The notes under the pieces: model-generated
The model's input: only the letters and a program-made list of their open reading frames with translations
Database searches by the model: none
Told to the model about the DNA's origin: nothing
Shown here: positions 931 through 63,605 of the stretch, piece after piece
How positions within the stretch are numbered: position 1 is the stretch's first letter
Layout of the letters: each line of letters opens with the position of its first letter
DNA from: Sulfurospirillum sp. SCADC
GTDB lineage: Bacteria; Campylobacterota; Campylobacteria; Campylobacterales; Sulfurospirillaceae
Reading direction: 5' to 3'
Length of the DNA stretch: 64,000 nucleotides
Assembly (NCBI RefSeq): GCF_000743525.1
Contig: NZ_JQGK01000003.1
Span: forward strand, 62,001 to 126,000
Translations under genes and position numbers: made by a program

Positions 931-971
931 TTTCCCAACCCTTACATGTAAATATTTCCTTAGGAGAATCG

Positions 972-1418
972 ATGAAACTCTCTTCATTGTTAGCGTTACC
1001 CCTTGCGGCATTATTGCTTATTGGATGTGGTGGAAAAGTGAAAGAAAATGCTAAGTACAACTACATTACAGCGGATGAAACGGCAAAGTTGATGCGTGAA
1101 GACGCCTCTAAAATCGTCTTGGTGGACATTCAAGAGAAAAAAGATTTTGAGGAAGAGCATTTAAAAGGTGCGCTTGAAACCTATGCGTATCCTGTTAAAA
1201 CCGAGGATGAAAAAGCCCGACTTGCAGCATTGCTTCCAGACATTAAGCCAGATCAAAAAGTGATCATCGTCTGCCCAAGAGGCGGTGGAGGAGCAGATAG
1301 GGCGTATGACTTTTACCTTGAAAAAGGGCTCAAAAAAGAACAACTCTTAACGCTCAAAGACGGTCAATACGGTTGGCCTCGCGATAAAATCAAAGATGTT
1401 TTAGCCGTTAGCAAATAA
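972..1418 (+). CDS. Rhodanese-domain lipoprotein
   Basis: The 148-residue product begins with a lipoprotein signal peptide whose lipobox LIGC places the lipidated cysteine at residue 19, so it should be anchored in the periplasm. Residues ~35-145 form a single rhodanese domain, with the candidate active cysteine at C101 in VIIVCPRGGGG. Rhodaneses carry persulfide sulfur or bind thiol/metalloid substrates. The loop CPRGGGGADR is longer in glycines than classic rhodaneses, so the true substrate is unclear. The start follows AGGAG (961-965). Its TAA stop shares one base with the ATG of the next gene, so it is the first gene of a five-gene operon. Confidence 0.85.
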   Translation: MKLSSLLALPLAALLLIGCGGKVKENAKYNYITADETAKLMREDASKIVLVDIQEKKDFEEEHLKGALETYAYPVKTEDEKARLAALLPDIKPDQKVIIVCPRGGGGADRAYDFYLEKGLKKEQLLTLKDGQYGWPRDKIKDVLAVSK

Positions 1419-2089
1419 TGCTCAAACCTTCCAAAATCGCGATACTGCTTCTTAGCGGTGTCGCGCTTACCCTTTTTTTTATCTGCCCTCAGACACGCCA
1501 TTTCTTTTTTGAGTTGATCGCCCTGTTTCAAAGCTTAGACATCGAAACTATCAAAGCGTACATTCTCTCCTTTGGCATGCTCGCTCCTTTGGTTTCTTTT
1601 GCGTTGATGGTCTTTCAAGCGGTCTTGGCACCACTTCCAGCGTTTCTCATCACCTTTGCGAACGCAGCGCTCTTTGGCTGGGTGTATGGAGCCGCACTTT
1701 CATGGTTTAGCGCGATGGTGGGAGCACTGTTGTGTTTTTACATCGCCAAGTTTTTGGGTCGCGATGTGGTCGAAAAACTCACCAGTAAAATGGCGTTGGA
1801 AAGCGTGGATGCTTTTTTTGAGAAGCATGGCACGTACGCGATTGTGATCGCCAGACTGCTTCCGTTTATCTCCTTTGATGTGGTGAGTTACGCCGCAGGG
1901 TTGACCTCCATGAGGCTGAGCTCTTTTTTGATCGCCACAGGTATGGGGCAACTGCCTGCAACGTTGGTCTATTCGTACGCAGGAGAGATGCTCACAGGCG
2001 GCGCTAAAACGGTCGTTTACGGTCTTTTGATCTTGTTTGCGGTTTCTATTTTGGTCTACCTGATCAAGCGGGTGTATCGTGCAAAGTGA
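1418..2089 (+). CDS. TVP38/TMEM64 (DedA-like) membrane protein
   Basis: A 223-residue integral membrane protein with about six hydrophobic segments. It carries the VTT/SNARE-associated domain, including the re-entrant stretch around FANAALFGWVYGA and the arginine-containing motif IVIARLLPFISFDVVSYAAG that typifies TVP38/TMEM64 proteins. Relatives are implicated in lipid scrambling or in uptake and export of small ions, and they recur beside mercury, selenium and arsenosugar genes. It overlaps the rhodanese gene by one base and the following Fe-S gene by 11 bases, so the three are translationally coupled. The substrate cannot be read from the sequence. Confidence 0.85.
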   Translation: MLKPSKIAILLLSGVALTLFFICPQTRHFFFELIALFQSLDIETIKAYILSFGMLAPLVSFALMVFQAVLAPLPAFLITFANAALFGWVYGAALSWFSAMVGALLCFYIAKFLGRDVVEKLTSKMALESVDAFFEKHGTYAIVIARLLPFISFDVVSYAAGLTSMRLSSFLIATGMGQLPATLVYSYAGEMLTGGAKTVVYGLLILFAVSILVYLIKRVYRAK

Positions 2090-3191
2090 GATTAGCGCGT
2101 ATGAAAAGGCGTGTGTAGACTGTAGGAGCTGTATGAAGGGCTGTCCGATGCTTTACAGCTTCACCATTTCTCCCAAAACATTGCTGAGTAAATTTACCAC
2201 GGAACGTCCTTCGAGCGATATGGCATTTGCCTGTGCCAATTGTGGACTTTGCGCGCATATGTGTCCTCAAGACATCGACTTTGGAAAGGTGTTTACCGCT
2301 TCCAAAGCGCAGTTTGCGGAAGATAAAAACGTGTTGAAAAAGTACGGTTATGGTGCGGTCATCTTCCACCAAAAAAGTAGTTTTTCAAGACTTTTTTCGA
2401 CGACTAAAAGCTTTACGCAAGGAGCGTACACGCATATGGCATTTATGCCCGGATGTGCGCTGAGCTCGTACTCTCCACGCCTTATTCATACGGTTTTTCA
2501 TTACTTACAATCCAAATGCTCAGGCATGGGCATCATTCAGCAGTGCTGTGGCACACCCACACGCATGATGGGCGACATGACGCAGTTTCAAACTTACCAT
2601 TCCAAGCTTGAGCGTGATCTTGAAAAAATGGGCGCAACCACGGTGGTGACTGCGTGTGAGAACTGTTTTATGAGTCTTAAAACCTATGTGCCGCATATCA
2701 AAATCGTCTCGCTTTATTCATTGTTAGCTCAAATCGGACTGCCAGAGCATGCAAAAGAGCGCCATAAAAATGCACCCAAAATGGCACTGCATGACCCGTG
2801 TCCGACGCGGTATGAAAAAGAGATTCACCACGATGTGCGCACGCTTTTAATGCAGATCGGATTGCCTTATGAGGAGTTCAAACAAAACCGTGAAAAAACG
2901 CTCTGCTGTGGCAGTGGGGGCATGTTGGAACTCACCCATTCGGGCTTAGCGCATGAGCAGATGCGTTCTCGTGCCCATCAAACGGAGTGTGAGAGCATTG
3001 TCAGTTACTGCCAAAGTTGCGCGGAGTCGATGAGTAAAGGGGGTAAAAACGGGGTGCATCTGCTCGATCTCATCTTCAATCCTGCGTTTGCGATGAAACA
3101 AGAAGTGCCGGGCACTTTAAAAAAATGGTATAACCGTTTTAGCTCACGCCAGAAAATCAGCGCTTTAAAGGATAACGCATCAAAAAAGTGA
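2079..3191 (+). CDS. CCG-domain (Fe-S)-binding oxidoreductase, GlpC/HdrB-like
   Basis: 370 residues starting at GTG, overlapping the preceding gene. Two N-terminal 4Fe-4S motifs are visible (CVDCRSCMKGCP near residue 13 and CANCGLCAHMCP near 51). They are followed by two CCG domains: CCGTPTRMMG with a later ACENC, and CCGSGGMLEL with a later YCQSCAE. This is the layout of glycolate/lactate oxidase iron-sulfur subunits and heterodisulfide reductase HdrD-like proteins, which move electrons between flavoproteins, quinones and disulfides. No flavin partner gene adjoins it. A soluble cytoplasmic protein handling thiol-disulfide or metalloid redox chemistry in this operon is a reasonable inference. 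Confidence 0.8.
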   Translation: MQSEISAYEKACVDCRSCMKGCPMLYSFTISPKTLLSKFTTERPSSDMAFACANCGLCAHMCPQDIDFGKVFTASKAQFAEDKNVLKKYGYGAVIFHQKSSFSRLFSTTKSFTQGAYTHMAFMPGCALSSYSPRLIHTVFHYLQSKCSGMGIIQQCCGTPTRMMGDMTQFQTYHSKLERDLEKMGATTVVTACENCFMSLKTYVPHIKIVSLYSLLAQIGLPEHAKERHKNAPKMALHDPCPTRYEKEIHHDVRTLLMQIGLPYEEFKQNREKTLCCGSGGMLELTHSGLAHEQMRSRAHQTECESIVSYCQSCAESMSKGGKNGVHLLDLIFNPAFAMKQEVPGTLKKWYNRFSSRQKISALKDNASKK

Positions 3192-3823: not shown

Positions 3824-6794
3824 TTGGCAGAGAATCGTTTTTGAAGAGCGTCCGATTTACGTGCACCGTTTTAGTGCAGACTGGTTTGTGCCAAATGCAA
3901 GTGCAGATGCGCTTTTACAAAGTGCGGAAAAAAGCCTTGCGTATGAGACGTTAAAACACCGCATCTCAGAGCCCAATCCGCTGGTTTACACACCCAAATC
4001 CTCTTCCAAAACAGCTCTTCACGAGTTTTGGATACACCTCACCAACCGTTGCAATCTTAGCTGTACGCACTGCCTTTTTAGCTCTTCACCTAAAGAGAAA
4101 GATACGCTGAATTTCGAGACGATTGCTTTACATGTAAATGAGGCGTACACTCTTGGCTGTCGGCTTTTTATCATCAGCGGTGGTGAGCCGTTGGTGCATC
4201 CTGAACTGTTGGCTTTGGTGGAGATAATTTTAGCGATGAGCGACACCGAAGTGGTCATTTTAACCAATGGCATCTTGCTTGAAAAAGTCTTTACATGTAA
4301 AGACTTCCCAACCTCACGTCTGCACTTCCAAATCAGCCTTGATGGATTGCCTAAAGAGCATGATGCGATTCGAGGCGTTGGGAGTTTTGAGAAACTTGAG
4401 CGCAACATCCTTTGGCTTCAAAAAGCAGGGTATTCGTTCTCGCTTTCGGTCTGTCTGCATCCACTGAATATCCACAGTTTAGATGCGATTGTGACGTTGG
4501 CAAGCGCACTTAAAGCGGGTCATCTGCATTTCTTATGGTACTTTTCGCGTGGACGAGGCGTTGATGAGGGCTTGATAGCGCATGACACGCTCTTTAACGC
4601 GCTCACAAACGCCTATCAAAAAGCGCAAACGTTAGGACTTGTCATCGACAATTTTGAAGCCCTGAAAACACAAATCTTCGCGCCAAAAGGCACGGTGCAT
4701 GACGGCTCAAGTTCAGGGCGCAGTTCCATCGCTTTAGGTTACGATGGGCACTTTTACCCCAGTGCGGCGATGGTCGGCGAGGGCGCACTTTGGATGGAAG
4801 GAGAGAGCATTGCTGAAGCACTTGAAAGCAGAGTGGCTAAAGACATTGCGTCGCATTCCATCACCGCACTCTCTTCACCACTGCGCTTTTTACTTGGTGG
4901 CGGCGACTTAGACCACAGCTTTTCGCATGCCAAAACAGTGATGGGCGATGACCCGTATGAACCGCTGTTGGAAAAGCTCGCATTGTGGCTGATCCTGCAA
5001 GAGGCGAAGCAGTTTGAATCTTTACATGTAAAGCCTGCTTTATGTTTGGAGATGGGCGACATTCTTTACAGTTGTGGGGCAAATGAGGGCGTGGCGCATA
5101 CCCATGCGAACTGTCTGCTTGCCACTGGGGAGAGCGAGTCGTTGCGCTTGGTCAAAGCCTTTTACCATGATGCGGCATTGGAAGATAAGGAAAGCATTCT
5201 CAATCCTGCGTGCTACGAAGAGCAGTACCTTTCGCATATTCCCTCCCATTTGCGCTTTCGAGGCTACGGCTGTGGAAGTCCTATCTTAGATGCGAAACTA
5301 AAGCAGGGTGAGTCGATGCTAGATTTGGGTTCAGGCAGAGGCATTGAGTGTTTTATCGCCTCCAAATTGGTGGGTAAAAATGGGCGTGTGGTGGGGGTTG
5401 ATATGCTCGACTCGATGCTGAAAATCGCGCGAAGTGGGGCAGAAGAGGTGGCTCAAAGTCTGGGGTATAGCAACCTCACGTTTGCCAAAGGCTACCTTGA
5501 AGCATTGCCTGAAAATGAGGGGAGTTTTGATGTCATCACTTCCAACTGCGTGCTCAATCTCTCCAGTCATAAACGCAAACTCTTTGCGGAAATCTTTCGG
5601 GTGCTGAAAAAGGGTGGAAGGCTTGTGGTCTCCGATGTCATCTGCGATGAAGAGGCGAGCGCTATCATCCGCAATGATGCGAAACTGAGTGGCGAGTGCA
5701 TCGGTGGAGCGCTTACGCAAACCCATCTTTTAGGACTGCTTCGTGAGAGTGGGTTTGAGCATATTGCGCTTATCAAACGCTTTTTTTACCGTGAAGTGCA
5801 AGGGCACAATTTTTACTCGCTCACCTTTGAGGCGTACAAATCCAGTGAACAAAAGAGGATCGAAGTCATCTATAAAGGTGTGGGCGAGAGCCTCGCGTTG
5901 GACAACGGTGTTGTGCTGTTTAAAGGCATCAAAACACGTATCGATGAGGCGTTGGCGAAACGGTTGGAAAGCGAGCTGTTTCTACTCGATGAAAAGGGAA
6001 ATGCCACCAACCAAGAGGGGCAAAGCTGTTCGTGTGCGACACCGCCTGAGGCGAAATCAAGCCTTTTAGTGGCACCTACAGCAAAGGTTTCCTTTAGTGT
6101 AGCACCTAAACAAAATCATAACTGCATGGTCTGCTCCTCAGAGCTTGTCTATAAGGCGACGCTTGAAGAAGCCACATGCTCCTACTGCGGAAGTATCAGT
6201 CATCAAAGCGTTACATGTAAAGAGGGGCATTATGTCTGCGATGCGTGTCACTCTAAAGAGGCATTAGCGGTGATAGAGCATCTCTGTGCAACATCCCAAG
6301 AGCGTGATATGCTCAAACTTTTTAGGCAAATCAGAGAACACCCCAGCATCCCAAAACACGGTCCTGAACACCACGCGATGGTGCCTGTCATCATCGTAAC
6401 TGCCTATAAAAACAGTGGTGGAAAACTGCCCGAAAATGCACTTAAAGCCGCCATTTCAAGAGGTTCTAGCGTGATGGGTGGCGCGTGTGGGTTTTTAGGA
6501 ATTTGTGGTGCGGCAAGCGGTGTTGGCATTGGTTTTGCCATTTTGTTAGAGGCTTCACCCGTAGCAAAAAAAGCGCGCTCCACAGCTCAAAAAGTAACGT
6601 ACGCGGTGCTCGGCAAAATCGCCGAATACGAAGCGGCTCGTTGTTGTCACAGGGAAGTCTGGACAGCGCTCAACATCGCCTCATCGTTGTCCGAAACGTT
6701 TTTACATGTAAAGCTTTTGGCTGAGAGAGAAACCAAATGCGATCAGAAGAAATTTAACCAGTATTGTTACGGCAAAGCGTGCCCGATCTTTTAA
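3813..6794 (+). CDS. Radical SAM / SAM-methyltransferase / DUF5714 fusion protein
   Basis: A 993-residue multidomain protein. Residues ~70-260 are a radical SAM domain with the cluster motif CNLSCTHC (C80, C84, C87) and the GGEP motif at ~123. Residues ~465-650 are a class I methyltransferase (LDLGSGRG at 503-510, VVGVDM at ~526) preceded by FRGYGCGSPI, a signature shared with ArsM-like methyltransferases. Residues ~765-993 are cysteine-rich and match the DUF5714 layout (CMVCSSEL, CSYCGS, CDACHS, then GGACGFLGICG). The radical SAM half lacks an obvious cysteine-rich SPASM end. The combination suggests C-S/As/Se bond chemistry plus methylation; the substrate is unknown. Five copies of the TTACATGTAA palindrome are embedded in frame. 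Confidence 0.82.
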   Translation: MKNSWQRIVFEERPIYVHRFSADWFVPNASADALLQSAEKSLAYETLKHRISEPNPLVYTPKSSSKTALHEFWIHLTNRCNLSCTHCLFSSSPKEKDTLNFETIALHVNEAYTLGCRLFIISGGEPLVHPELLALVEIILAMSDTEVVILTNGILLEKVFTCKDFPTSRLHFQISLDGLPKEHDAIRGVGSFEKLERNILWLQKAGYSFSLSVCLHPLNIHSLDAIVTLASALKAGHLHFLWYFSRGRGVDEGLIAHDTLFNALTNAYQKAQTLGLVIDNFEALKTQIFAPKGTVHDGSSSGRSSIALGYDGHFYPSAAMVGEGALWMEGESIAEALESRVAKDIASHSITALSSPLRFLLGGGDLDHSFSHAKTVMGDDPYEPLLEKLALWLILQEAKQFESLHVKPALCLEMGDILYSCGANEGVAHTHANCLLATGESESLRLVKAFYHDAALEDKESILNPACYEEQYLSHIPSHLRFRGYGCGSPILDAKLKQGESMLDLGSGRGIECFIASKLVGKNGRVVGVDMLDSMLKIARSGAEEVAQSLGYSNLTFAKGYLEALPENEGSFDVITSNCVLNLSSHKRKLFAEIFRVLKKGGRLVVSDVICDEEASAIIRNDAKLSGECIGGALTQTHLLGLLRESGFEHIALIKRFFYREVQGHNFYSLTFEAYKSSEQKRIEVIYKGVGESLALDNGVVLFKGIKTRIDEALAKRLESELFLLDEKGNATNQEGQSCSCATPPEAKSSLLVAPTAKVSFSVAPKQNHNCMVCSSELVYKATLEEATCSYCGSISHQSVTCKEGHYVCDACHSKEALAVIEHLCATSQERDMLKLFRQIREHPSIPKHGPEHHAMVPVIIVTAYKNSGGKLPENALKAAISRGSSVMGGACGFLGICGAASGVGIGFAILLEASPVAKKARSTAQKVTYAVLGKIAEYEAARCCHREVWTALNIASSLSETFLHVKLLAERETKCDQKKFNQYCYGKACPIF

Positions 6795-7980: not shown

Positions 7981-8155
7981 AACTTTTCCTTAAATGAGAT
8001 TTTTAATCAAAAAATTTTACTGTAAGATCGTAGCATGAAAATAGCGTTACATGTAAAAGCGGCTAGACGTTAAAAATTTACGATATTTCCTTTTTTCTCA
8101 GCAATTTTATAGCAAAAGGAGACTATAAAGTGAAGATGAAACGACAAGGATCTGC

Positions 8156-9326: not shown

Positions 9327-9346
9327 TTTATAAAAAAGGAGACACC

Positions 9347-10017: not shown

Positions 10018-10173
10018 GGGTCTAAAAATTTAGAAATTTATAATGAAAAGTAGAAAGGGAGAGGCTACTTTTTATCTGCCACAAACTCATAGAATTCTGG
10101 TAAATAACGTTACATCTCTTTTTTACATGTAAACCCAAAATCCCCACAAAATTAAATTTACAAAACTAAAATA

Positions 10174-15213: not shown

Positions 15214-15732
15214 ATGCAAAATAGCAGCAGAAGAGGGGTTTTTACCTCTCTTTTTGGTAGGAAAAGCGCACAAAAAATTCAAAAAGAGCCCAGTGTGGTG
15301 CGCCCACCGTATCATCAAGAGGGGTATGATTTTTTAGATCATTGCGTTACATGTAACGAGTCACCGTGCATGAACGCCTGTGAAGAAAAGATCATCTTCC
15401 TAGGTGCCGACCATACGCCTTGCTTAGACTTTACCAAAGGTGGATGTACCTTTTGTGAAGCGTGCGCAAGTGCGTGTCCGAGTGATGTTTTGAGTCTTAC
15501 ATGTAAAGATCAAAAAGCTTTACATGTAAAAGCGCAAATCGACATCTTGAGCTGTATGGCATGGCATCAAAGTTTGTGCAACAGCTGTTTGGATGCGTGT
15601 GAGCCTAGGGCTATTTTATTTTTAGGATTGTTTCGCCCACATGTCGAGATGGATGTCTGCACTGGCTGTGGCATGTGTGTAAGCATCTGCCCAAGCAGTG
15701 CGATTCTCATCAAAGAGGAGGTAAAGGTATGA
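15214..15732 (+). CDS. napF: Ferredoxin-type protein NapF
   Basis: 172 residues, no signal peptide, so cytoplasmic. Cysteine groups for 4Fe-4S centres are seen: CVTCNESPCMNAC, CTFCEACASACP, CMAWHQSLCNSCLDACE and CTGCGMCVSICP. NapF is thought to help mature or energise NapA before export. Three copies of the TTACATGTAA palindrome occur in frame (15347, 15497, 15520), producing VTCN, LTCK and LHVK. One falls directly at the first cluster motif, so its cysteine is part of the cluster. Stop overlaps the napL start. Confidence 0.93.
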   Translation: MQNSSRRGVFTSLFGRKSAQKIQKEPSVVRPPYHQEGYDFLDHCVTCNESPCMNACEEKIIFLGADHTPCLDFTKGGCTFCEACASACPSDVLSLTCKDQKALHVKAQIDILSCMAWHQSLCNSCLDACEPRAILFLGLFRPHVEMDVCTGCGMCVSICPSSAILIKEEVKV

Positions 15733-16676: not shown

Positions 16677-17026
16677 ATATTTCAAGTATTGTGATACAAA
16701 CCAAGCCTTTACATGTAAAAGAGATCATCGCGATTTGCGAGGCGAGCGATTTTTGTGATTACCATTTTTGCGATGAGCAAACGGGCAAAATTGTCGTGAC
16801 GATTGAGGGTGAAAACCTTGATGAAGAGATGGCAAAAATGAAGCAAATCGAGAAGATTCCGCATGTCATCTGCGCCGATATGATGATGGCATACAGCGAA
16901 GATGAACTCGACGAACAACGCGAAATGCTAGCGCACGCGCCCAGTGTTCCAGAGATACTCAATGATGAAACGATTGCGCTTAAAGACATCGTCTATAAGG
17001 GTGATTTGAAAAAGAAAATAGACTAA
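16673..17026 (+). CDS. napD: NapD, NapA signal-peptide chaperone
   Basis: 117 residues from ATG 16673, which overlaps the napL stop (ATGA). The N-terminal MNISSIVIQTKPLHVKEIIA strand-helix and the later GKIVVTIEG strand form the ferredoxin-like fold of NapD. NapD binds the Tat leader of NapA and holds back export until the cofactor is inserted. A TTTACATGTAAA copy at 16708 encodes the LHVK of the first helix region. Last gene of the nap operon. Confidence 0.92.
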   Translation: MNISSIVIQTKPLHVKEIIAICEASDFCDYHFCDEQTGKIVVTIEGENLDEEMAKMKQIEKIPHVICADMMMAYSEDELDEQREMLAHAPSVPEILNDETIALKDIVYKGDLKKKID

Positions 17027-18736: not shown

Positions 18737-18774
18737 AACCACGTTTACATGTAAGCTTACATGTAAACGTGGTT
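18737..18774. terminator. 38-bp perfect palindrome, probable bidirectional terminator
   Basis: The arms (18737-18755 and 18756-18774) are perfect reverse complements with no loop, built from two TTTACATGTAA units flanked by AACCACG/CGTGGTT. It lies between the end of ychF and the converging truncated gene at 18790, so it can stop transcription from both sides. T-rich sequence follows. Confidence 0.75.
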
Positions 18775-19429: not shown

Positions 19430-20160
19430 GCAAAAGTGTTTTAGAGTATTTTGCTTTACCTAAGAGCTGTTATATCGATAAAAAGCTTTACAAAAAGCAA
19501 TTCATCGAAAACTTCTCTTTAAACATTCATGAGCGAAAGGTACTAAGTGAGTATGTGCAAAGCATCACCTTAGACTGCCTTCTCAATCAAAATACTATCA
19601 ACATTCCACCCTTTTCAAACGAAGAAATAGACTATACCGAAGTAGCTTTTGTAAGTGTCGAAATCACCTCGCAAGACAAGCTCAAAACTCTCTCCAAAAT
19701 CATCCAATACATTCCATACCCACTGATCGTTATCTTTACATGTAAAGAGTCTTGCTGCCTAAGCCTTTCCAACAAGCGCATCAACAAATCAGATAGCACA
19801 AAACTCTTTGTGGAAGAGGAATATTTTACCCCTTGGCTCAATCTTGAAAGTCTTTCATCCATTGAAAAAGAGTTTTTAGAAAGCTTACATGTAAAAGAAC
19901 ACCCTTTTACAGATTTGTATGCGTTTTATAAGAGCTATTTAGATAAACTTTTAGCGCTCAATGCCTCAAAATTTAGCGGTAATTTACATGTAAAAGAGAC
20001 AACCGAAGCATCACTCAAAGAGATACAAGCCTTACATGTAAAGATAAATGAACTCAAAAGCAAACTCAAAAAAGAGACCGCTTTCAATGCCAAAGTAGCG
20101 TTAAACATTGAGATAAAAAAAATGAACGACAAAATAGAAAAATTAAAAGAGAGTTTATAA
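19426..20160 (+). CDS. DUF4391 domain protein
   Basis: 244 residues. The N-terminal ~150 residues (LEYFALPKSCYIDKKLYKKQ onward, with IPYPLIVIFTCKE in the middle and EYFTPWLN later) match the DUF4391 layout. The C-terminus is a lysine-rich coiled coil (KSKLKKETAFNAKVALNIEI onward). DUF4391 proteins accompany helicases and type III-like methylases in bacterial defence islands; their biochemical role is unknown. Four TTACATGTAA palindromes lie in this one gene (19737-20041), giving FTCK once and LHVK three times. It follows the truncated helicase fragment with a four-base overlap. Confidence 0.65.
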   Translation: MSKSVLEYFALPKSCYIDKKLYKKQFIENFSLNIHERKVLSEYVQSITLDCLLNQNTINIPPFSNEEIDYTEVAFVSVEITSQDKLKTLSKIIQYIPYPLIVIFTCKESCCLSLSNKRINKSDSTKLFVEEEYFTPWLNLESLSSIEKEFLESLHVKEHPFTDLYAFYKSYLDKLLALNASKFSGNLHVKETTEASLKEIQALHVKINELKSKLKKETAFNAKVALNIEIKKMNDKIEKLKESL

Positions 20161-20737: not shown

Positions 20738-22639
20738 ATGCAACAACTAAATGGCACATCAAAAGACATTCTCGCTGAAAACATAGAAAAACTAAAAGAG
20801 CTATTCCCAGAAGTTTTCAGTGAAGGCAAGATAGATTTTAAAAAGCTTGAAGAGGAACTTGGAACCTTTACATGTAATGATGCTGAGCGCTACAACTTCA
20901 CATGGGCGGGTAAAAGTGAAGCTAAAAAGATAGCCCAAACACCAAGCACGGGAACACTAAGACCATGTCGTGAAGAGAGCAAAAAATGGGATACCACGCA
21001 AAATCTCTACATCGAGGGCGACAATCTTGAAGTCTTAAAGCTTCTTCAAAAGTCCTACTACAAACAAGTCAAGATGATCTACATCGACCCACCATACAAC
21101 ACAGGCAAAGACTTTGTCTATAAAGATAACTTTCACGACAATATCAAAAACTACCTCGAAATCACAGGGCAAGTCGATAGCGAAGGCAACAAACTCTCGA
21201 CCAATAGCGACACAAATGGACGCTACCACAGTGACTGGCTCTCTATGATGTATCCACGCCTTAAACTCGCTCGCAATCTTTTGAAAGACGATGGCGTTAT
21301 TTTTATCTCAATTGATGATAATGAAGTGGCAAATTTGAGAAAAGTGTGTGATGAAATTTTTGGAGAAGACAACTTTGTAGCTGAAATTTCTGTAGCGTCA
21401 AACTCTTCAAAAAATAACGCTAAACTTTTTTCCATATCCCATGAGTATATGTTATGTTATGCAAAAAGTAAAATATGCATAAACGAAGAATGGAAAGTGA
21501 AGAAAAATAATGTCGATGAATATTATAGTAGAGCTATGCAATTGGTTAAAAGAGGTCTTACAGAAGAAGAAATTCATAATGAATTATTAGAATTGGTTAA
21601 ATATCCAAGATTTTACGATTTAGATCACTATACTTTTGCTGATGAGAATGGTATTTATCAAACAGATAATCCAGGAGGCGTTTCAAATGGCAATATGATA
21701 ACTGAAATATATCATCCCGTAACAAATAAAAAATGCACGAAACCAAATGGAGGATGGCGTTATAAAGACGAAGAAATTCAAAGAATGCTAAATGAAGGTC
21801 TGTTTTCCTTTGGAGAAGATGAAACAGGAATACCACGACCAAAGAGATATTTAAAAGATTATATGTCTCAACTTCCAAAATCGACAATGTTTTTTGACTC
21901 ACAATCTTCAACAAAATGGTTAAAATCAAATAAAATACCATTTGATTTTGCAAAGTCTATTGAGTTAATTAAGCATATATTGTCAATTTTTCCCAATGAT
22001 GTTGTTCTTGACTTTTTTAGTGGCTCTGCAACAACAGCTCATGCAGTGATGCAACTTAATTCAGAAGATGAAGGCAATCGCAAATTTATCATGGTGCAAT
22101 TACCCGAAACGACAGACAATAAAGAATATTCAACAATTTGCGAAATAGGTAAAGAACGCATACGAAGAGCGGGAGAAAAAATCATCGCTGAAAATTGCAA
22201 TAAAGATTTGTCAAACCTCGATATAGGCTTTAAAGTCCTTAAACTCGATAGCTCAAATATCAAAGCATGGGATAGCAACTTTAAAAATGTCGAAGGAAGC
22301 CTTCTTGATGCAGTCGAAAACATCAAAAGCGATAGAAGCAGTGAAGATTTACTCTACGAAATCCTTTTAAAATACGGACTTGACCTAACACTCCCTATCG
22401 AAGAAAAAGAAATGAATGACAAAAAAGTATTTATCATAGGCTATGGTGCCTTGGTTGCTTGCTTAGACAATGACATCACCATCCCAACCGTCGAAGCCAT
22501 AGCCAAACTAAAAGAACACTACCAAAGCGAAATTATGCGAGTAGTCTTCAAAGATGCAAGCTTCAAAGATGCGGTGGTTAAAACCAACGCTTATCAAATT
22601 TTGAAACAATTCGGCATTGACGAAGTTGTGAGTGTGTGA
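20738..22639 (+). CDS. mod: Type III restriction-modification methyltransferase (Mod)
   Basis: 633 residues. Catalytic motif IV DPPYNTG at 117-123 precedes the AdoMet motif I FFSGSATTAHAVMQL at ~425, the beta-class order of type III N6-adenine methyltransferases. The variable region between (residues ~210-390) is more AT-rich and is the target-recognition domain. It contains no simple repeat, so no obvious phase-variation tract. Mod both protects host DNA and specifies cleavage by Res. One TTTACATGTAA is near the 5' end. Its partner Res gene lies downstream but is separated by an unrelated ATP-binding gene. Confidence 0.93.
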   Translation: MQQLNGTSKDILAENIEKLKELFPEVFSEGKIDFKKLEEELGTFTCNDAERYNFTWAGKSEAKKIAQTPSTGTLRPCREESKKWDTTQNLYIEGDNLEVLKLLQKSYYKQVKMIYIDPPYNTGKDFVYKDNFHDNIKNYLEITGQVDSEGNKLSTNSDTNGRYHSDWLSMMYPRLKLARNLLKDDGVIFISIDDNEVANLRKVCDEIFGEDNFVAEISVASNSSKNNAKLFSISHEYMLCYAKSKICINEEWKVKKNNVDEYYSRAMQLVKRGLTEEEIHNELLELVKYPRFYDLDHYTFADENGIYQTDNPGGVSNGNMITEIYHPVTNKKCTKPNGGWRYKDEEIQRMLNEGLFSFGEDETGIPRPKRYLKDYMSQLPKSTMFFDSQSSTKWLKSNKIPFDFAKSIELIKHILSIFPNDVVLDFFSGSATTAHAVMQLNSEDEGNRKFIMVQLPETTDNKEYSTICEIGKERIRRAGEKIIAENCNKDLSNLDIGFKVLKLDSSNIKAWDSNFKNVEGSLLDAVENIKSDRSSEDLLYEILLKYGLDLTLPIEEKEMNDKKVFIIGYGALVACLDNDITIPTVEAIAKLKEHYQSEIMRVVFKDASFKDAVVKTNAYQILKQFGIDEVVSV

Positions 22640-22733: not shown

Positions 22734-24077
22734 ATGAATTTACACATTAACGAATCCCAAAACATAGAATTTAAACAATCTTGGAGAGATGAATATATCA
22801 AATGGATCAGTGCATTTGGTAATAGCGATGGTGGAAAACTTTATATTGGGGTCAATGATGAGGGTGAAATTATTGGTATAGAAAATGCAAAAAAACTTCT
22901 CGAAGATATACCAAATAAGATAAAAGATATTTTGGGCATCATGGCAGATGTCAACTTACATGTAAAAGAAGACAAAGAGTATCTTGAAATCATCACAGAT
23001 AAATATCCATACCCTATAAGCTATAAAGGCTCATACTACTACAGAAGTGGAAGTAGCACGCAAGAGCTAAAAGGTGCCGCACTTGATAAATTTTTGCTCT
23101 CTCGTCAAGGCAAAAAGTGGGATGGCGTACCCGTGCCTTATTTTGGTTATGATGATTTAGATCCATTTGCATTTAAACTTTTTCGCCAAAAAGCAGAGAA
23201 AAAGAAGCGAATCGATGCTGAACTTTTAAACGTGAGCGATGAAGTGCTTGTCGATAAACTACATCTCAAAGAAGGTGATTATCTGAAGCGTGCCACAACA
23301 CTTCTTTTTGCTAAAGTTCCTCAAAAATATGTCACTGGAAGCATCATAAAGATAGGCTATTTTAAGTCAGACAGCGATTTGGTCTATCAAGATGTAATCG
23401 AAGGCAATCTGTTTGAGCAAGTCGATAAAACTATGGAGCTTATCTTTACAAAATACCTGAAAGCACTCATAACTTATGAAGGTGTTCAAAGAGTTGAGAG
23501 TTTCCCAGTATCTGAACAGGCTTTTAGAGAAGCGCTTATTAATGCAGTGGTACATAAAGATTACGGCTCGGGGCATACCATACAGATAAGTGTTTATGAT
23601 GATAAATTACTAATCTGGAATGCTGGAGATTTACCACCACACTGGACTGTAGAGACACTTTTGCAAAAGCATTCTTCTGAGCCACATAATCCTGCTATTG
23701 CGTATCCTTTTTTCTTAGCTGGTTATATCGAATCATGGGGAAGAGGCATAGAGAAAATTATCGATGAATCTAAAAAATTCAATGGCATTACTCCACAGTT
23801 TAAGTGGCAAAATGGCTTATGGGTTGAGTTTTATTTTAATAAAGCGAAAAGATCATCTGATGGGTTGGGTGATGGGTTGGGTGATGGGTTGGGTGATACA
23901 CAACAAAATATAATACTTCTCATACAAAATAATCCAAGAATTTCCACAACAGCCCTTGCCTCTAAACTTAATATCAGTACAACTGCTATTGAAAAACATA
24001 TTAAAACATTAAAAGCACAAAACGTAATCCAAAGAGTAGGAAGTGCTAAAGGTGGACATTGGGAGATGATAAAATGA
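22734..24077 (+). CDS. AlbA_2 (Schlafen-like) ATP-binding protein with C-terminal winged helix
   Basis: 447 residues. The N-terminus (ESQNIEFKQSW, then KWISAFGNSDGGKLYIGVND) is an AlbA_2/Schlafen-type domain. Residues ~255-370 resemble the HATPase_c_4 domain (FREALINAVVHKDYGSG, IWNAGDLPPHW, GRGIEKII). The last ~60 residues are a winged helix (STTALASKLNISTTAIEKHI). A linker of three DGLG repeats lies before it. Family members are usually called transcriptional regulators or ATP-dependent helicases, and occur in defence islands. Here the gene sits between mod and res and overlaps res by four bases, so it is translated with the restriction genes. Confidence 0.82.
   Translation: MNLHINESQNIEFKQSWRDEYIKWISAFGNSDGGKLYIGVNDEGEIIGIENAKKLLEDIPNKIKDILGIMADVNLHVKEDKEYLEIITDKYPYPISYKGSYYYRSGSSTQELKGAALDKFLLSRQGKKWDGVPVPYFGYDDLDPFAFKLFRQKAEKKKRIDAELLNVSDEVLVDKLHLKEGDYLKRATTLLFAKVPQKYVTGSIIKIGYFKSDSDLVYQDVIEGNLFEQVDKTMELIFTKYLKALITYEGVQRVESFPVSEQAFREALINAVVHKDYGSGHTIQISVYDDKLLIWNAGDLPPHWTVETLLQKHSSEPHNPAIAYPFFLAGYIESWGRGIEKIIDESKKFNGITPQFKWQNGLWVEFYFNKAKRSSDGLGDGLGDGLGDTQQNIILLIQNNPRISTTALASKLNISTTAIEKHIKTLKAQNVIQRVGSAKGGHWEMIK
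23859..23894 (+). repeat. 12-bp in-frame tandem repeat (GATGGGTTGGGT x3)
   Basis: Three perfect copies start at 23859, 23871 and 23883, followed by a partial GAT. They encode Asp-Gly-Leu-Gly three times in the hinge between the ATPase and winged-helix parts of the AlbA_2 protein. Unit gain or loss would change linker length without shifting frame. Confidence 0.9.
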
Positions 24078-27888: not shown

Positions 27889-27938
27889 TTTACATGTAAA
27901 GCCTCAAGAAAAGAGGGTGGTTATTTTTACATGTAAAA
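27889..27938. repeat. Pair of TTTACATGTAAA palindromes between divergent genes
   Basis: Copies at 27889-27900 and 27927-27938 lie in the 205-bp gap between the divergent FTR-rhodanese and torD-like genes. The remaining gap is T-rich and shows no gene. Position upstream of both genes fits a regulatory or spacer role better than termination. Confidence 0.6.
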
Positions 27939-40734: not shown

Positions 40735-40988
40735 CTCTTTCTCTTTCCTATTATTTCGTCAAAAAAACTCTTTTTACCTGCGATTATTTTGCTCTTTTTT
40801 TTATTTAAAATTTTCCTTGAAGCTTCAAATTAATTATAAAAATAACGGGCATATTAAAGGTTTAGATGGATGGGTTTATGCGTCTGTCTGGATGCGTTTG
40901 AATGTAAAACGTAGCGCATCGTTTTTGGCATAAATTAACGTCATAACGGCTTTACATGTAAAGTCGTTTTATCTTCAAGGAGAAACGT

Positions 40989-42198: not shown

Positions 42199-42231
42199 CG
42201 CTTTTACATGTAAAGTTTACATGTAAAAGCG
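42199..42231. terminator. Palindromic bidirectional terminator from two TTTACATGTAAA units
   Basis: Arms 42199-42214 and 42216-42231 are perfect 16-bp inverted copies around a single G. They lie in the 45-bp gap between the porin stop and the stop of the converging signalling gene, with T-rich sequence on the plus side and A-rich on the other. The two arms are two TTTACATGTAAA units plus flanking CGCTT/AAGCG. Confidence 0.8.
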
Positions 42232-45136: not shown

Positions 45137-46528
45137 ATGAAAACAACACAAACCCACTCTTTTGAGCAACTCATCACCAATGCGGACATGTTAGCCAACC
45201 TCACACAACTTGGCTACACCACCATGACGCCCATCCAAGAAGCATCGTTAGTGTACATCATCGAAGGGCGCGACATCGTCGCCAAAGCGAAAACCGGCAG
45301 TGGCAAGACCGCCGCGTTTGGTTTGCCGCTTCTTTTAGCTTTACATGTAAACTCCATGCGCATTCAGTCTGTCGTACTCTGCCCAACGCGCGAACTTGCC
45401 GAACAAGTCAGCGCGGAGCTTAGACGACTCGCCAGATTTGCGCATAACATTAAAATCGTCACGCTGTGTGGTGGAACGCGTTTTGTACCGCAGTGCATCA
45501 ACCTAGAGCATGGCGCGCACATCGTGGTCGGAACGCCGGGGCGCATTTTGCAACATTTGCAAGAGAAAACCATTAACTTTGAGCAGATTAAAACGCTCGT
45601 CCTCGATGAAGCAGACCGTATGCTCGACATGGGTTTTTACGAAGACATCGAGAAGATCATCGCCAAAATGCCTGCAAAACGTCAAACCTTGCTTTTTTCC
45701 GCCACCTTTCCCAAAGAGATCGAGCGCATGTGCAACGAAGTGCAAAACGATGCTTTACATGTAAGCATCGAAGAAGAGGCAACCACCTCACCCAACATCA
45801 CCCAAATCTGCTACACCGTCGAACCACGCGAAAAAGAGGCCGCACTCAAAGGCGTTTTGTTAGAGAGCGATGCCAAGTCAGTCATCATCTTTTGTAAAAC
45901 CAAAGTGGGCGTCGCCGAGCTTCAAGGTTACCTGTTAGATGAAGGCTTTGATGCACTTAGTTTGCATGGTGATTTAGAACAGATCGACCGCGACGAGCAC
46001 CTGCTACTTTTCGCCAACGGCAGTGCCCAAATCCTCGTAGCCACCGACCTTGCCTCACGCGGACTGGACGTCAAAGATGTCGAGATGGTCATCAACTACG
46101 AACTCCCTCAAACGATGGAAATCTACACCCACCGAATCGGTCGAACAGGGCGCATGGAAAAAGAAGGCATGGCAGTCAGCTTCGTCACGCCAAGAGAAGA
46201 GGGCTTCTTTGAAGAGCTCACAGAGGCAAATTTTGCCTTTACATGTAAACGCATCAGCGACCTAAATCCAACCCTCTCAAAGCCCAAAAAAGCCCTGTGC
46301 ATCACGCTCTGCATCGACGCAGGCAAAAAACACAAAATGCGCGCAGGCGACATCTTGGGAACGCTCACCAAAGACTTGGGTCTGGAGGCTGGGATCATTG
46401 GAAAAATTGACATCTTAGAGAAGTTTTCTTACGTCGCCATAGCGCGCGAATATGCCGATAAAGCGTTTGATGGGCTGTGTGCTACGACGATTAAAAATAG
46501 ACGGTTTAAGATTTGGAAGTTGGGGTAA
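45137..46528 (+). CDS. dbpA: ATP-dependent RNA helicase DbpA
   Basis: 463 residues. The DEAD-box motifs are all present: Q motif (TTMTPIQEASL), AKTGSGKT, PTRELAEQ, DEAD, SAT, and RIGRTGR. The C-terminal ~70 residues (KKHKMRAGDILGTLTKDLGL through FKIWKLG) are the DbpA RNA-binding domain that recognises 23S rRNA hairpin 92. It aids large-subunit assembly. Three TTACATGTAA copies lie in frame (LHVN, LHVS, FTCK), two between and one within conserved motif regions. Confidence 0.94.
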   Translation: MKTTQTHSFEQLITNADMLANLTQLGYTTMTPIQEASLVYIIEGRDIVAKAKTGSGKTAAFGLPLLLALHVNSMRIQSVVLCPTRELAEQVSAELRRLARFAHNIKIVTLCGGTRFVPQCINLEHGAHIVVGTPGRILQHLQEKTINFEQIKTLVLDEADRMLDMGFYEDIEKIIAKMPAKRQTLLFSATFPKEIERMCNEVQNDALHVSIEEEATTSPNITQICYTVEPREKEAALKGVLLESDAKSVIIFCKTKVGVAELQGYLLDEGFDALSLHGDLEQIDRDEHLLLFANGSAQILVATDLASRGLDVKDVEMVINYELPQTMEIYTHRIGRTGRMEKEGMAVSFVTPREEGFFEELTEANFAFTCKRISDLNPTLSKPKKALCITLCIDAGKKHKMRAGDILGTLTKDLGLEAGIIGKIDILEKFSYVAIAREYADKAFDGLCATTIKNRRFKIWKLG

Positions 46529-48750: not shown

Positions 48751-49362
48751 TTAACCTCTCACCGCTTTCAACCAGTTATAAATCGTAGCCTTCGAGACAT
48801 TTAAAACCGAGCAGATATACCCCACAACATTGCGAATGGCGAAGATGCCTTCACTCTCTAAAAAAACCACCAACTCTTTTTTGTCATCACTCGAAAGACC
48901 TGAGAGGGCGATGTTTTTAATACTCAAATATTTCTCTATCGTCTCATCGGTGTGTTCTCTCCAACTTTGGGAAAAAAGCACGGAGGGTTTGGGTGCGGAG
49001 TCGTTTACATGTAAAAAGCCTTTGAGCGACTCAAACAGCGATTCTATCGGTTCTGTGTTGTAGTTAATGCAGATCATCCCGATGGGTTTTTCCTCCGCGT
49101 CTCGCACGATGATGCTCACCGCTTTGAGGCGTTTGCCTTCACTGCTGGTTTTATCGTACGGGCCGACCCAATTTTCTTTGATGCTGTTTAGGTCTTTGAG
49201 CTCGCTTATCATCGCATCGCCGACGCGACGTTTGGAGAAGGCATTGACGATGTGGACGAGTTTTTTGGCTTCAAGATCGTGCATGACGACTTCGACATTG
49301 GGGTAAAACAGTTTTGCTATGGCATCGCACAAGGCGACATAAGGTTTGAGCTCTTTTTTCAT
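48751..49362 (-). CDS. DauR/YheO-like transcriptional regulator
   Basis: 203 residues from ATG 49362; a TTG nine codons earlier is possible but unlikely. The N-terminal half is a YheO-like PAS domain (YVALCDAIAKLFYPNVEVVM, IGMICINYNTEPIESLF). The C-terminal 60 residues are a DauR-type helix-turn-helix (IRNVVGYICSVLNVSKATIY). Proteins of this family sense amino acid derivatives, for example D-arginine, and control adjacent dehydrogenases. It is transcribed divergently from the dehydrogenase gene at 49452, with an operator-like palindrome between. One TTTACATGTAAA lies within. Confidence 0.85.
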   Translation of the reverse strand: MKKELKPYVALCDAIAKLFYPNVEVVMHDLEAKKLVHIVNAFSKRRVGDAMISELKDLNSIKENWVGPYDKTSSEGKRLKAVSIIVRDAEEKPIGMICINYNTEPIESLFESLKGFLHVNDSAPKPSVLFSQSWREHTDETIEKYLSIKNIALSGLSSDDKKELVVFLESEGIFAIRNVVGYICSVLNVSKATIYNWLKAVRG

Positions 49363-54247: not shown

Positions 54248-54258
54248 AAGGAATAGCA

Positions 54259-55158: not shown

Positions 55159-55164
55159 TCTTTA

Positions 55165-55192
55165 CATGTAAGGAGAAATCTCTCCTTACATG
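55165..55192 (+). terminator. Hairpin after the fdh operon, from a TTACATGTAA half-pair
   Basis: CATGTAAGGAGA (55165-55176) pairs perfectly with TCTCCTTACATG (55181-55192) around a four-base loop. The right arm keeps only part of the second palindrome (TTACATGA), so one unit has decayed. There is no strong T run after it. Confidence 0.6.
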
Positions 55193-55279
55193 ACCTCAAA
55201 CGTTTTACATGTAAAACCTCTTTTGCGATTTTCAAACTTCTGTGCTATACTTTTGTCAAATTTTCTTAAAGGAGACCCG

Positions 55280-56835: not shown

Positions 56836-56918
56836 TGCTTTACATGTAAAGATTTTGAGGTAAAGAAAATAGGTCTTGTGGTACACTAAATCAATCATTT
56901 TAAGCAGGAGTTACCGTT

Positions 56919-59813: not shown

Positions 59814-59852
59814 TTTACATGTAAAGAGAGATTTTCCTCCTTTACATGTAAA
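59814..59852. terminator. Inverted pair of TTTACATGTAAA between two minus-strand genes
   Basis: Copies at 59814-59825 and 59841-59852 with GAGAG/CTCC inner bases form a 13-bp or longer stem around ~13 bases. It lies directly downstream of the chemoreceptor gene (stop at 59865 on the reverse strand), so it is placed as that gene's terminator. Confidence 0.6.
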
Positions 59853-62050: not shown

Positions 62051-62069
62051 GGCTTTACATGTAAAGCCC
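62050..62069. terminator. 20-bp palindrome GGGCTTTACATGTAAAGCCC between convergent genes
   Basis: The palindrome is perfect, starts at the last base of the XRE stop and ends eight bases before the yebC stop. A TTTACATGTAAA unit forms its centre. It can act as a terminator for either gene, with A/T tracts weak on both sides. Confidence 0.65.
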
Positions 62070-62076: not shown

Positions 62077-62787
62077 TTAACCAATATTCGTGTAAACTGC
62101 CTGTACGTCGTCATCGTCTTCGATTTTTTCGATGATCTTTTCAACATCCACCATCTGCTCTTCGCTAAAGCTGACCGGCGTGTTAGCGATGCGCTCCAAG
62201 TTGGCTTTGGTAAGGCTAATGCCAAGGCGATCAAACGCGGCGTTGAGTGTTCCAAAGTTGGTGTAGTCAGCATACACCAAGACCACGCCATCTTCTTCCT
62301 CAATCTCTTCAAGTCCAGCGTCGATCAGCTCAAGCTCTAGCTCTTCGATGTCCATCTCAGAAGTCTTCGCGAACTCAAAAACCGCTTTGCGTGAGAACAT
62401 AAATTCGAGTGAGCCATTATTGACCATCTCTCCGCCTGCTTTTTTAAACGCGCTTTTGATGTTCGCAACCGTTCGTGTGTTATTGTCCGTTGCGCATTCC
62501 ACAAAAAAAAGTGAACCGTGCGGTCCTTTGCCTTCAAAGGTGACTTCGCTAAGGGTTTGTGCATCTTTGCCAAGGGCTCGTTTAATCGCCGCATCGATGT
62601 TGTCTTTGGGCATATTTTCCGCTTTAGCGTTGAGGATCGCTGTTCTGAGTTTTGCATTGCTCTCAGGGTCTCCGCCGCCTTCTTTGGCCGCCATCATAAT
62701 GGTTCGGCCCAGTCTTGGAAATACGCGTGACATATTTCCCCATCGTTTCATTTTTGATGCTTTTCGGTATTCAAACGCTCTTCCCAT
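62077..62787 (-). CDS. yebC: YebC/PmpR-family protein
   Basis: 236 residues from ATG 62787, giving the standard start [16 protein letters not shown]; the longer frame uses a TTG. Conserved blocks [16 protein letters not shown]-like (residues ~65-85: [20 protein letters not shown]) and the [20 protein letters not shown] segment are clear. YebC proteins resolve ribosome stalling at polyproline or act as DNA-binding regulators. Convergent with the XRE gene. Confidence 0.95.
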
Positions 62788-62909
62788 AGGGGTCAATTCC
62801 TTGTTATGATGTTCTTAATAGTGCATTATTATAGCTTGTTTAACCCTTGTTTAAAATAAGAGTTTCTTCTATAATAGTTCAACAGTTCACACATTCAAAG
62901 GATGATACG

Positions 62910-63506
62910 ATGGAAAATTTAAAAAAAATCTATAAAAAACATGGCTTCGAGCTCATTTGTGTTCCCACGCAAGAAGAAGCGCTGAGTGTCGCGATGAGTT
63001 TTATTAAGCCGCACATGAGCATAGGATTTGGCGGATCGACGACGGTTAAAGAAATTGGGCTGTATGACTATGTTACTTCTCGTAAAGACATCACACTTTT
63101 TAATCAATATGAAGTGGGCATCAGCATGGAAGAAAACAGTGAGCGAAGGCACAAAGGCATTCTCGCAGATCTTTACATCACGAGTACCAATGCGCTGACG
63201 AAAAATGGAGAACTGATCAATGCCGATGGTAGTGGAAATCGGGTCGCTGCACAGATCTTTGGACCTAAAAAGGTGCTGATTATTGCAGGCATCAATAAGT
63301 TGGTTGCAAACGTGGAAGAGGGCTTTGCGCGCATTCGCGATGTGGCAAGTCCCAAGAACATTGAGCGTATGAATAACCTTGCCATCAGTATGGGAAAAGA
63401 GCCACGCCATAACATGGGTAACATCGGTCGAAAATTTGCCTACATCAACGGCGATGACGAAGGGCGCACGACGATTATTTTGGTTGATGCGGTGCTTGGC
63501 TATTAA
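62910..63506 (+). CDS. LUD-domain (LutC-like, DUF162) protein
   Basis: 198 residues from ATG 62910 (AAAGGATG upstream); the longer frame lacks a ribosome site. The sequence FIKPHMSIGFGGSTTVKEIG, ADLYITSTNALTKNGELINA and GPKKVLIIAGINKLVANVEE is the LUD fold. LUD proteins act with Fe-S subunits in L-lactate oxidation, but standalone copies of unknown role are common. No lutA or lutB adjoins it. Confidence 0.88.
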   Translation: MENLKKIYKKHGFELICVPTQEEALSVAMSFIKPHMSIGFGGSTTVKEIGLYDYVTSRKDITLFNQYEVGISMEENSERRHKGILADLYITSTNALTKNGELINADGSGNRVAAQIFGPKKVLIIAGINKLVANVEEGFARIRDVASPKNIERMNNLAISMGKEPRHNMGNIGRKFAYINGDDEGRTTIILVDAVLGY

Positions 63507-63605
63507 AATGCTTCGCAGGGAAACACTTTACATGTAAATTTGTTATGGTGTGACTTATTTAGATTTTCCAAGGAAATTTGCATTAAAGTAAAATTATAAG
63601 AAGTT

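What the first reader, a model, noticed from the sequence alone, without database searches (positions are those of the whole stretch)
942..63537. A highly iterated palindrome, TTACATGTAA, saturates this genome segment
By direct reading there are 39 exact copies in 64 kb, against about 0.2 expected for this base composition. Most extend to TTTACATGTAAA. Twenty-two are inside genes of unrelated function and 17 lie in the small intergenic fraction, so it is enriched between genes yet tolerated in coding sequence. It resembles highly iterated palindromes such as HIP1 of cyanobacteria and the uptake signals of Neisseria and Pasteurellaceae. I know of no description of this particular palindrome in the phylum. 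It may be a DNA-uptake, methylation, nucleoid-protein or recombination signal.
Basis: partly seen in the sequence, partly recalled or inferred. Interest (0 to 1): 0.92.

Follow-up and report, generated by a model that had tools for sequence, protein, structure and literature searches.

The report
Genome-wide palindrome centred in phased DNA
A ten-letter DNA palindrome is repeated about 1,300 times across this Sulfurospirillum-type genome, is almost never allowed to mutate, and sits at the centre of about 270 bases of helically phased, probably curved DNA; it behaves like a self-recognition tag for DNA uptake of a kind not found described for this group of bacteria.

Summary
The window holds exactly 39 TTACATGTAA and the whole genome 1,309 (control string: 1). 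The motif is patchy in the phylum: about 900-1,500 copies in most congeners, 49-600 in some, hundreds in a few other genera, background elsewhere. In congeners at 83-90% identity, 87-100% of sites keep their exact position (random 10-mers 20-42%). In two congeners that lost the motif, sites decayed to the neutral level or below. Sites favour gene ends, above all gaps between convergent genes, often as hairpin-forming pairs; 64% are still in genes. One-mismatch copies are nearly absent.

The new finding is in the flanks. A+T content oscillates with an 11.2-bp period, locked to the palindrome's dyad, symmetrically to about ±135 bp. It occurs in genes (at third codon positions) and between them, and in no control.

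This fingerprint matches Haemophilus/Neisseria DNA uptake sequences point by point, except for the palindromic core and the long symmetric flanks. Methyltransferase-driven (HIP-like) maintenance is disfavoured: a 340-copy genome lacks all four methylase families tested. Best explanation: a palindromic DNA uptake sequence (about 0.5). Main rival: a DNA-wrapping or chromosome-architecture site. The reader protein is unidentified.

The parts
942..951 (.). TTACATGTAA site, intergenic upstream of ORF 972-1418
4128..4137 (.). site in ORF 3813-6794 (Leu-His-Val frame)
4291..4300 (.). site in ORF 3813-6794 (Thr-Cys frame)
5022..5031 (.). site in ORF 3813-6794
6211..6220 (.). site in ORF 3813-6794
6702..6711 (.). 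site in ORF 3813-6794
8047..8056 (.). site, divergent intergenic
10123..10132 (.). site, intergenic upstream of ORF 10247; conserved in G006, G007, G001
15347..15356 (.). site in ferredoxin-like ORF 15214-15732; conserved in 5/5 motif-bearing congeners
15497..15506 (.). site in ORF 15214-15732, 23 bp from the next; conserved 5/5
15520..15529 (.). site in ORF 15214-15732; conserved 5/5
16709..16718 (.). site in ORF 16661-17026; conserved 4/5
18745..18766 (.). two sites 12 bp apart in a convergent gap (18731/18790); arms of a 16-bp perfect hairpin; both conserved 5/5
   Evidence: (fold -24.4 kcal/mol)
19736..19745 (.). site in DUF4391 ORF 19426-20160 of a strain-specific island
19885..19894 (.). 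site in ORF 19426-20160 (island)
19984..19993 (.). site in ORF 19426-20160 (island)
20032..20041 (.). site in ORF 19426-20160 (island)
20868..20877 (.). site in type III Mod-like ORF 20738-22639 (island)
22956..22965 (.). site in Schlafen/AlbA-like ORF 22734-24077 (island)
27890..27899 (.). site, divergent intergenic, 37 bp from the next; conserved 5/5
27927..27936 (.). site, divergent intergenic; conserved 4/5
28256..28265 (.). site in nitrate-reductase-delta-like ORF 28022-28567; conserved 4/5
34897..34906 (.). site in ORF 34276-35946; conserved 5/5
38346..38355 (.). site in cytochrome-c-like ORF ending 39065; conserved 5/5
40952..40961 (.). site, intergenic upstream of ORF 40989; conserved 5/5
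42204..42226 (.). two sites 13 bp apart in a convergent gap (42188/42234); hairpin arms
   Evidence: (-21.7 kcal/mol)
45341..45350 (.). site in RNA-helicase-like ORF 45137-46528; conserved 5/5
45755..45764 (.). site in ORF 45137-46528; conserved 3/5
46239..46248 (.). site in ORF 45137-46528; conserved 5/5
49005..49014 (.). site in ORF 48751-49389 (- strand); conserved 5/5
55162..55171 (.). site a few bp past the stop of ORF 54244-55158
55205..55214 (.). site, intergenic, 43 bp after the previous one
56840..56849 (.). site 4 bp past the stop of ORF 55462-56835; conserved 5/5
59815..59851 (.). two sites 27 bp apart, between - strand ORFs; hairpin arms
   Evidence: (-20.4 kcal/mol)
62055..62064 (.). 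site in the convergent gap 62050/62077; conserved 5/5
63528..63537 (.). site just past the stop of ORF 62847-63506; conserved 4/5

Best explanation
TTACATGTAA (core TACATGTA, weak extension to CTTTACATGTAAAG) is a genome-wide DNA uptake sequence. A receptor on the competence pilus / type II-like machine binds the palindrome in extracellular DNA. The helically phased A/T-rich flanks (period 11.2 bp, about 135 bp each side) pre-bend the DNA so that a doubled-back loop with the palindrome at its apex can enter the secretin. Fragments carrying the motif are taken up and recombine preferentially, so intact sites keep replacing mutated ones; this drive would explain copy number, sharp consensus and positional conservation. 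Close pairs have been co-opted as hairpins between convergent genes. SHOWN: abundance, sharpness, positional conservation, decay in lineages that lost it, gene-end preference, pairs, phased flanks acting at DNA level, and an intact competence cluster in the same genome. INFERRED: that DNA is taken up, that the motif is recognised in uptake, that the flanks are actually bent, and the drive itself. UNKNOWN: the receptor.
For: The features that define known uptake sequences (PMC1626085: about one per kb, more regular than random, closely spaced opposed pairs, preference for non-coding DNA with 65% of USS still in coding, far more perfect than one-off copies, AT-rich flank segments about one helical turn apart) are mirrored: 0.49/kb; variance/mean 0.5-0.7 in 10-20 kb bins, P 0.04-0.08; 12 close pairs against 2.2 expected, folding into perfect hairpins; 64% genic but intergenic density 2.6 against 0.36/kb, 10/kb in convergent gaps. 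Representation falls 125-fold from 0 to 1 mismatch (319x to 2.55x), against 92- and 82-fold for H. influenzae and N. gonorrhoeae (PMC1939737). Site positions conserved 87-100% against 20-42% for random 10-mers; core mismatch about 0-1% against about 6-34% in intergenic flanks. AT flanks phased at 11.2 bp, z = 13.5, strongest at codon position 3 (z = 12.2). ComEC, secretin, ATPase and T2SSF genes present and open. A strain-specific island carries 6 sites (0.66/kb), as expected of DNA imported from motif-bearing donors. In C. jejuni DNA uptake is already known to depend on a methylated motif (PMC8468864).
Against: No known uptake sequence is palindromic (own knowledge plus the papers read), and none is reported with phased flanks of nine turns on both sides. 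The competence cluster is also intact in G009 and G017, which lost the motif, and ComEC is in all 40 genomes tested whatever their count; competence genes therefore do not predict the motif, and a specificity change must be assumed. G011 has stops or frameshifts in two competence genes yet 1,245 well-conserved sites, which requires a recent loss or a sequencing error. No receptor was found: five pilin genes were examined and none separates motif-bearing from motif-free species. I found no report of natural transformation in Sulfurospirillum in the held papers.
Confidence: 0.5

Rival explanations
1. Chromosome-architecture site: a dimeric DNA-bending or wrapping factor (a nucleoid protein, or gyrase guided by one) binds the palindrome and wraps or loops about 270 bp whose A/T tracts face inward. 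The 11.2-bp repeat would place the palindrome at the apex of plectonemic supercoil loops, preferentially past gene ends where transcription-driven supercoils collect.
For: Phased A/T tracts in register with the dyad out to about ±135 bp, absent from all controls; enrichment past stop codons and in convergent gaps. E. coli gyrase sites show a 130-bp element with 10-bp phased G/C content and lie downstream of transcribed units (PMC6379681). The same phase is seen in f8 and g3/g4 genomes.
Against: It would need about 1,300 sites each under selection strong enough to be almost invariant in several species; a copying drive explains this more easily. The motif is wholly lost in close congeners that remain viable. 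The gyrase element is half as long, degenerate and without an invariant 10-mer. No origin-terminus trend in a subset of 56 sites of one complete genome.
Confidence: 0.27
2. HIP-like element kept by a cognate DNA methyltransferase and a methylation-dependent repair or recombination bias, as proposed for HIP1.
For: Short, highly iterated palindrome with alternate states between lineages; deviations concentrate at the outer bases, as described for HIP1 (PMC4390886).
Against: G149 (340 copies) lacks D12, N6_N4, C5 and EcoRI-type methylases; G001, G006, G007 and G011 lack N6_N4; G005 and G011 lack C5; G184 and G021 lack D12; EcoRI-type is in 7 of 53 genomes. It does not predict phased flanks or gene-end pairs. 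Type I, type IIG and other methylase families were not tested.
Confidence: 0.08
3. Transcription terminators or a global regulator's operators: the repeats act at gene ends (hairpins) or promoters, and the genic copies are by-products.
For: 20 of 38 convergent gaps of at least 10 bp contain a site, 8 of them two; pairs form strong hairpins.
Against: 64% of sites are inside genes and equally conserved; single sites form weak hairpins and have no T-run downstream (T 0.32, A 0.31); divergent (promoter) gaps have the lowest intergenic density. Termination looks like a secondary use.
Confidence: 0.05

Closest known systems
Haemophilus influenzae / Pasteurellaceae uptake signal sequence (USS, AAGTGCGGT)
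   Same: Copy density within about twofold, same coding share (64% v 65%), close pairs, gene-end preference, very few one-mismatch copies, A/T-rich flank segments spaced about one helical turn, lineage-specific presence (PMC1626085, PMC1939737, PMC7811141).
   Different: Core here is a perfect palindrome without direction; A/T phasing is symmetric and about nine turns per side rather than two segments on one side; different phylum and machine; uptake untested; receptor unknown.
Neisseria DNA uptake sequence (DUS, GCCGTCTGAA)
   Same: Copy-number class, sharp consensus, close pairs, family-wide but variable.
   Different: DUS is not palindromic and has no phased flanks (PMC1626085).
HIP1 (GCGATCGC) of cyanobacteria
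   Same: Highly iterated perfect palindrome, lineage-variable.
   Different: HIP1 and alternate HIPs track cognate methyltransferases (PMC4390886); here none of four families does.
E. coli DNA gyrase cleavage element / BIME-2
   Same: Helically phased base composition around a dyad; location past gene ends (PMC6379681).
   Different: 130 bp with 10-bp phasing and a degenerate core, against about 270 bp with 11.2-bp phasing and an invariant 10-mer.
Campylobacter jejuni CtsM-methylated uptake motif
   Same: Short symmetric motif deciding DNA uptake in the same phylum through the Cts machine (PMC8468864).
   Different: There the discriminator is methylation of a very frequent site; here a rare palindrome is hugely over-represented and no common methylase was found.

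Membership tests
DNA uptake sequence (USS/DUS) | Over-representation of order one copy per kb across the whole genome | tested here: met
   1,309 in 2.66 Mb (0.49/kb), control 1
DNA uptake sequence (USS/DUS) | Far more perfect than one-mismatch copies | tested here: met
   319x v 2.55x over expectation
DNA uptake sequence (USS/DUS) | Prefers non-coding DNA but most copies in coding; close opposed pairs | tested here: met
DNA uptake sequence (USS/DUS) | Spacing somewhat more regular than random | tested here: inconclusive
   variance/mean 0.5-0.7, P 0.04-0.08 in 10-20 kb bins; none at 5 kb
DNA uptake sequence (USS/DUS) | Host carries a DNA-uptake machine | tested here: met
   ComEC, secretin, ATPase, T2SSF, pilins; present also in motif-free relatives
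DNA uptake sequence (USS/DUS) | Motif-bearing DNA is preferentially taken up by competent cells | not testable with these tools
   needs an uptake assay; this is the defining feature
DNA uptake sequence (USS/DUS) | Known receptor (ComP in Neisseria) | tested here: inconclusive
   five pilin genes found, none tracks the motif; structure search of one gave nothing
HIP1-type highly iterated palindrome | Cognate methyltransferase present wherever the palindrome is frequent | tested here: not met
   G149 and others lack the families tested; not every methylase family was tested
HIP1-type highly iterated palindrome | Perfect short palindrome at high genomic frequency | tested here: met
Gyrase strong site | 130-bp element with about 10-bp phased base composition and degenerate core | tested here: not met
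   11.2-bp phasing to about ±135 bp and an invariant 10-mer
CtsM (EcoRI-type) methylated uptake motif | CtsM-type methylase in motif-rich genomes | tested here: not met
   PF13651 in 7 of 53 genomes, not in G000; placing CtsM in this family is from memory

The most novel reading that the evidence does not exclude
The palindrome is the dyad of about 1,300 positioned nucleoprotein units: each about 270 bp of DNA with 11.2-bp phased A/T tracts is wrapped or held as an apical supercoil loop by a still unknown factor, giving a bacterial chromosome with sequence-positioned wrapping sites that are nearly invariant between species and can be lost within a genus.
Probability: 0.25. Interest if true: 0.93.

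Novelty: new variant of a known kind. Interest (0 to 1): 0.8.

Why it matters
If it is an uptake sequence, it would be a third, independently evolved system in a phylum where none of the papers searched describes one, in cultivable non-pathogens, and its symmetric core with long phased flanks would bear on the open question of how stiff double-stranded DNA is folded into the uptake pore. If it is instead an architectural site, it would be a rare case of sequence-positioned DNA wrapping across a bacterial chromosome. The natural gain and loss of the motif within one genus makes both readings testable by comparing gene content.

Tried and rejected
(1) Local anomaly or base-composition effect: rejected. 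(2) Methyltransferase-linked HIP: four methylase families searched in up to 53 genomes, none tracks the motif. (3) 'Dialects' in motif-free relatives: ATCATGAT in G083 looked promising but is mostly genic, only 3.7-fold enriched and not clearly phased, rejected; G009 shows no replacement motif; AGATGCT in G343 is not palindromic and not phased. (4) Loss of competence machinery as the cause of motif loss: rejected, the cluster is intact in G009 and G017. (5) Receptor search among pilins: no gene separates the groups; AlphaFold model of one minor pilin (pLDDT 71.5) found no structural neighbour. (6) A/T phasing as a protein-level or generic A-tract effect: rejected by third-codon-position signal, matched controls and a scan of 13,885 8-mers. 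(7) Rho-independent terminators as primary role: no T-run bias.
Full report
OBSERVATION. The window has exactly 39 TTACATGTAA; 24 extend to TTTACATGTAAA and 8 to CTTTACATGTAAAG, and the next commonest 10-bp palindrome has 4. The genome it comes from has 1,309 in 2.66 Mb; the reversed control string has 1. In 456 kb sampled (window plus two contigs) there are 237 against 0.55 expected from a third-order Markov model. The core is TACATGTA; the next outward bases are A 0.69 and G 0.50 per half-site. Over-representation is 319-fold for exact copies and 2.55-fold for one-mismatch copies.

DISTRIBUTION IN RELATIVES. All 24 genomes of the genus have it, but unevenly: most hold about 840-1,496 copies, others 605-608, 411-412, 238, 168 and 49. 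Across 397 genomes of the phylum, most sit at background (0-10); exceptions are two genera of the same family (107-657), a genus in f3 (1,059), and several genomes in f8 (48-380), while a third genus of the same family has 7-15. Named records show it in S. diekertiae, S. cavolei and S. arcachonense, and not in the Campylobacter, Sulfurimonas or Hydrogenimonas loci retrieved. The motif is therefore gained and lost.

POSITIONAL CONSERVATION. In syntenic 60-kb stretches, sites present in the window are found at the same position in 23/26 (G007), 24/24 (G006), 22/23 (G011), 20/23 (G001) and 22/23 (G004) aligned cases, while random 10-mers are conserved 20-42% at 83-90% identity. In G017 (238 copies) 3/15 survive and in G009 (49 copies) 0/18, against 23% and 15% for random 10-mers; the remnants show scattered substitutions. 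Core bases differ in about 0-1% of intergenic comparisons against about 6-34% in the flanks. These comparisons share ancestry and are not independent, but the contrast is very large.

WHERE SITES LIE. By crude gene calls, 152 of 237 sites (64%) are in genes: 96 read Leu-His-Val, 51 Thr-Cys, 5 form a Tyr-Met-stop gene end. Density is 0.36/kb in genes, 1.3/kb in divergent, 2.3/kb in tandem and 10.2/kb in convergent gaps; many tandem sites lie 8-18 bp past a stop codon. Of 38 convergent gaps of at least 10 bp, 20 contain a site and 8 contain two. Pairs 12-27 bp apart number 12 against 2.2 expected and fold into perfect hairpins, e.g. 18745/18757 and 42204/42217. Single gene-end sites show no T-run bias. 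Spacing on the 10-20 kb scale is slightly more regular than Poisson. A subset of 56 sites in the complete genome G007 shows no significant departure from uniformity.

PHASED FLANKS. Around the sites A+T content rises and falls with period 11.2 bp, in phase with the dyad and symmetric, with peaks at about 6.5, 17.5, 29, 40.5, 52, 62, 74, 85 and 96 bp outside the 10-mer; amplitude is 0.072 at 3-47 bp, 0.043 at 47-92, 0.021 at 92-137, and mostly noise beyond. Genic and intergenic sites share period and phase. In genes the effect is at codon position 3 (0.615 on-phase v 0.489 off-phase, z = 12.2), weak at position 1 (z = 3.8) and absent at position 2 (z = 1.2); random positions in the same genes give z = 1.7. 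Matched-flank controls and other motifs do not show it, and among 13,885 8-mers only those overlapping the palindrome stand out. Five congeners show it; g3/g4 and f8 genomes show it weakly with the same phase. That phased A/T tracts bend DNA is established knowledge; that this DNA is bent is an inference.

MECHANISM. Published hallmarks of uptake sequences (PMC1626085; PMC1939737; PMC7811141) match: density, regularity, close opposed pairs, 65% in coding, few one-off copies, A/T-rich flank segments about a turn apart, variation between subclades. A drive by biased uptake also explains why about 1,300 separate positions are nearly invariant, which selection on each site separately would hardly do. 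The genome has ComEC and a cluster of pilM-like, pilN-like, secretin, ATPase and T2SSF genes (Cts names are by resemblance) plus five pilin genes. A low-G+C type III restriction island (about 19.2-27.07 kb), absent at this place from five congeners, carries six sites at normal density, as expected if foreign DNA is preferentially accepted from motif-bearing donors.

WHAT DOES NOT FIT. The competence cluster is intact in the two congeners that lost the motif and broken in one that kept it, and ComEC is universal, so a change of specificity in an unidentified receptor must be assumed. Known uptake sequences are not palindromic. Nine phased turns on each side resemble wrapping sites: the E. coli gyrase element has 10-bp phased composition over 130 bp (PMC6379681), but a degenerate core and half the length. 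An architecture role is therefore kept as a serious rival at about 0.27.

METHYLATION. HIP1 and its alternates track cognate methyltransferases (PMC4390886). Here D12, N6_N4, C5 and EcoRI-type families were searched. G149, with 340 copies, has none of the four; other high-count genomes lack one or more. Type I, IIG and other families were not tested.

LITERATURE. None of the 18 held papers containing the 10-mer concerns this phylum; targeted searches found no report of an iterated palindrome or uptake sequence in these bacteria and no report of natural transformation in Sulfurospirillum. The library is partial.

LIMITS. Gene calls are crude. Whole genomes could not be loaded, so gene-content profiling against motif count, the most promising way to the reader protein, was not possible. 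Other-family phasing rests on 25-42 sites each. Genome identities other than those are inferred.

Noticed in passing
window 19210-27070: Strain-specific low-G+C (36%) island: DUF4391, PemK-like toxin, type III Mod and Res, Schlafen/AlbA protein; absent at this place in five congeners yet carrying six TTACATGTAA, four of them within 300 bp of one gene.
   Followed up: partly
window 46637-48639: AAA_21 ATPase plus RloB-like pair, a probable defence module; this stretch holds no palindrome and does not align to most congeners.
   Followed up: partly
window 9317-9852: RelB antitoxin / YafQ toxin pair.
   Followed up: no
L237 (G011 C1:1465001-1485000): Competence genes pilM/ctsX-like (two stops) and pilN-like (stop and frameshift) are broken in a genome with 1,245 conserved sites; recent loss or sequencing error.
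   Followed up: partly
L276 and L278 (minor pilins of G001 and G003): A minor pilin with conserved N-terminal half and hypervariable rest; the variable part is nearly identical in two distant species, suggesting exchange. Own genome has two different copies (L271, L277).
   Followed up: partly
L319:1598-3495: Uncultured Campylobacter contig with nine CAAATTTG in 1.9 kb, several in AATTCAAATTTGAATT-like contexts.
   Followed up: no
L321, L322: Campylobacter gastrosuis and C. majalis show 10-fold or more excess of GAAATTTC, which contains the RAATTY-type core linked to CtsM uptake in C. jejuni.
   Followed up: no
L064, L065, L082-L087 (G343): Genome in f8 g12 with excess AGATGCT/AGCATCT 7-mers, non-palindromic and not phased.
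   Followed up: partly
L314: Campylobacterales MAG with TTCATGAA nine times in 13.7 kb (0.36 expected), mostly in coding sequence.
   Followed up: partly
L252, L259 (G017 C23): High-G+C contig with general secretion genes in the G017 assembly, probably contamination.
   Followed up: no
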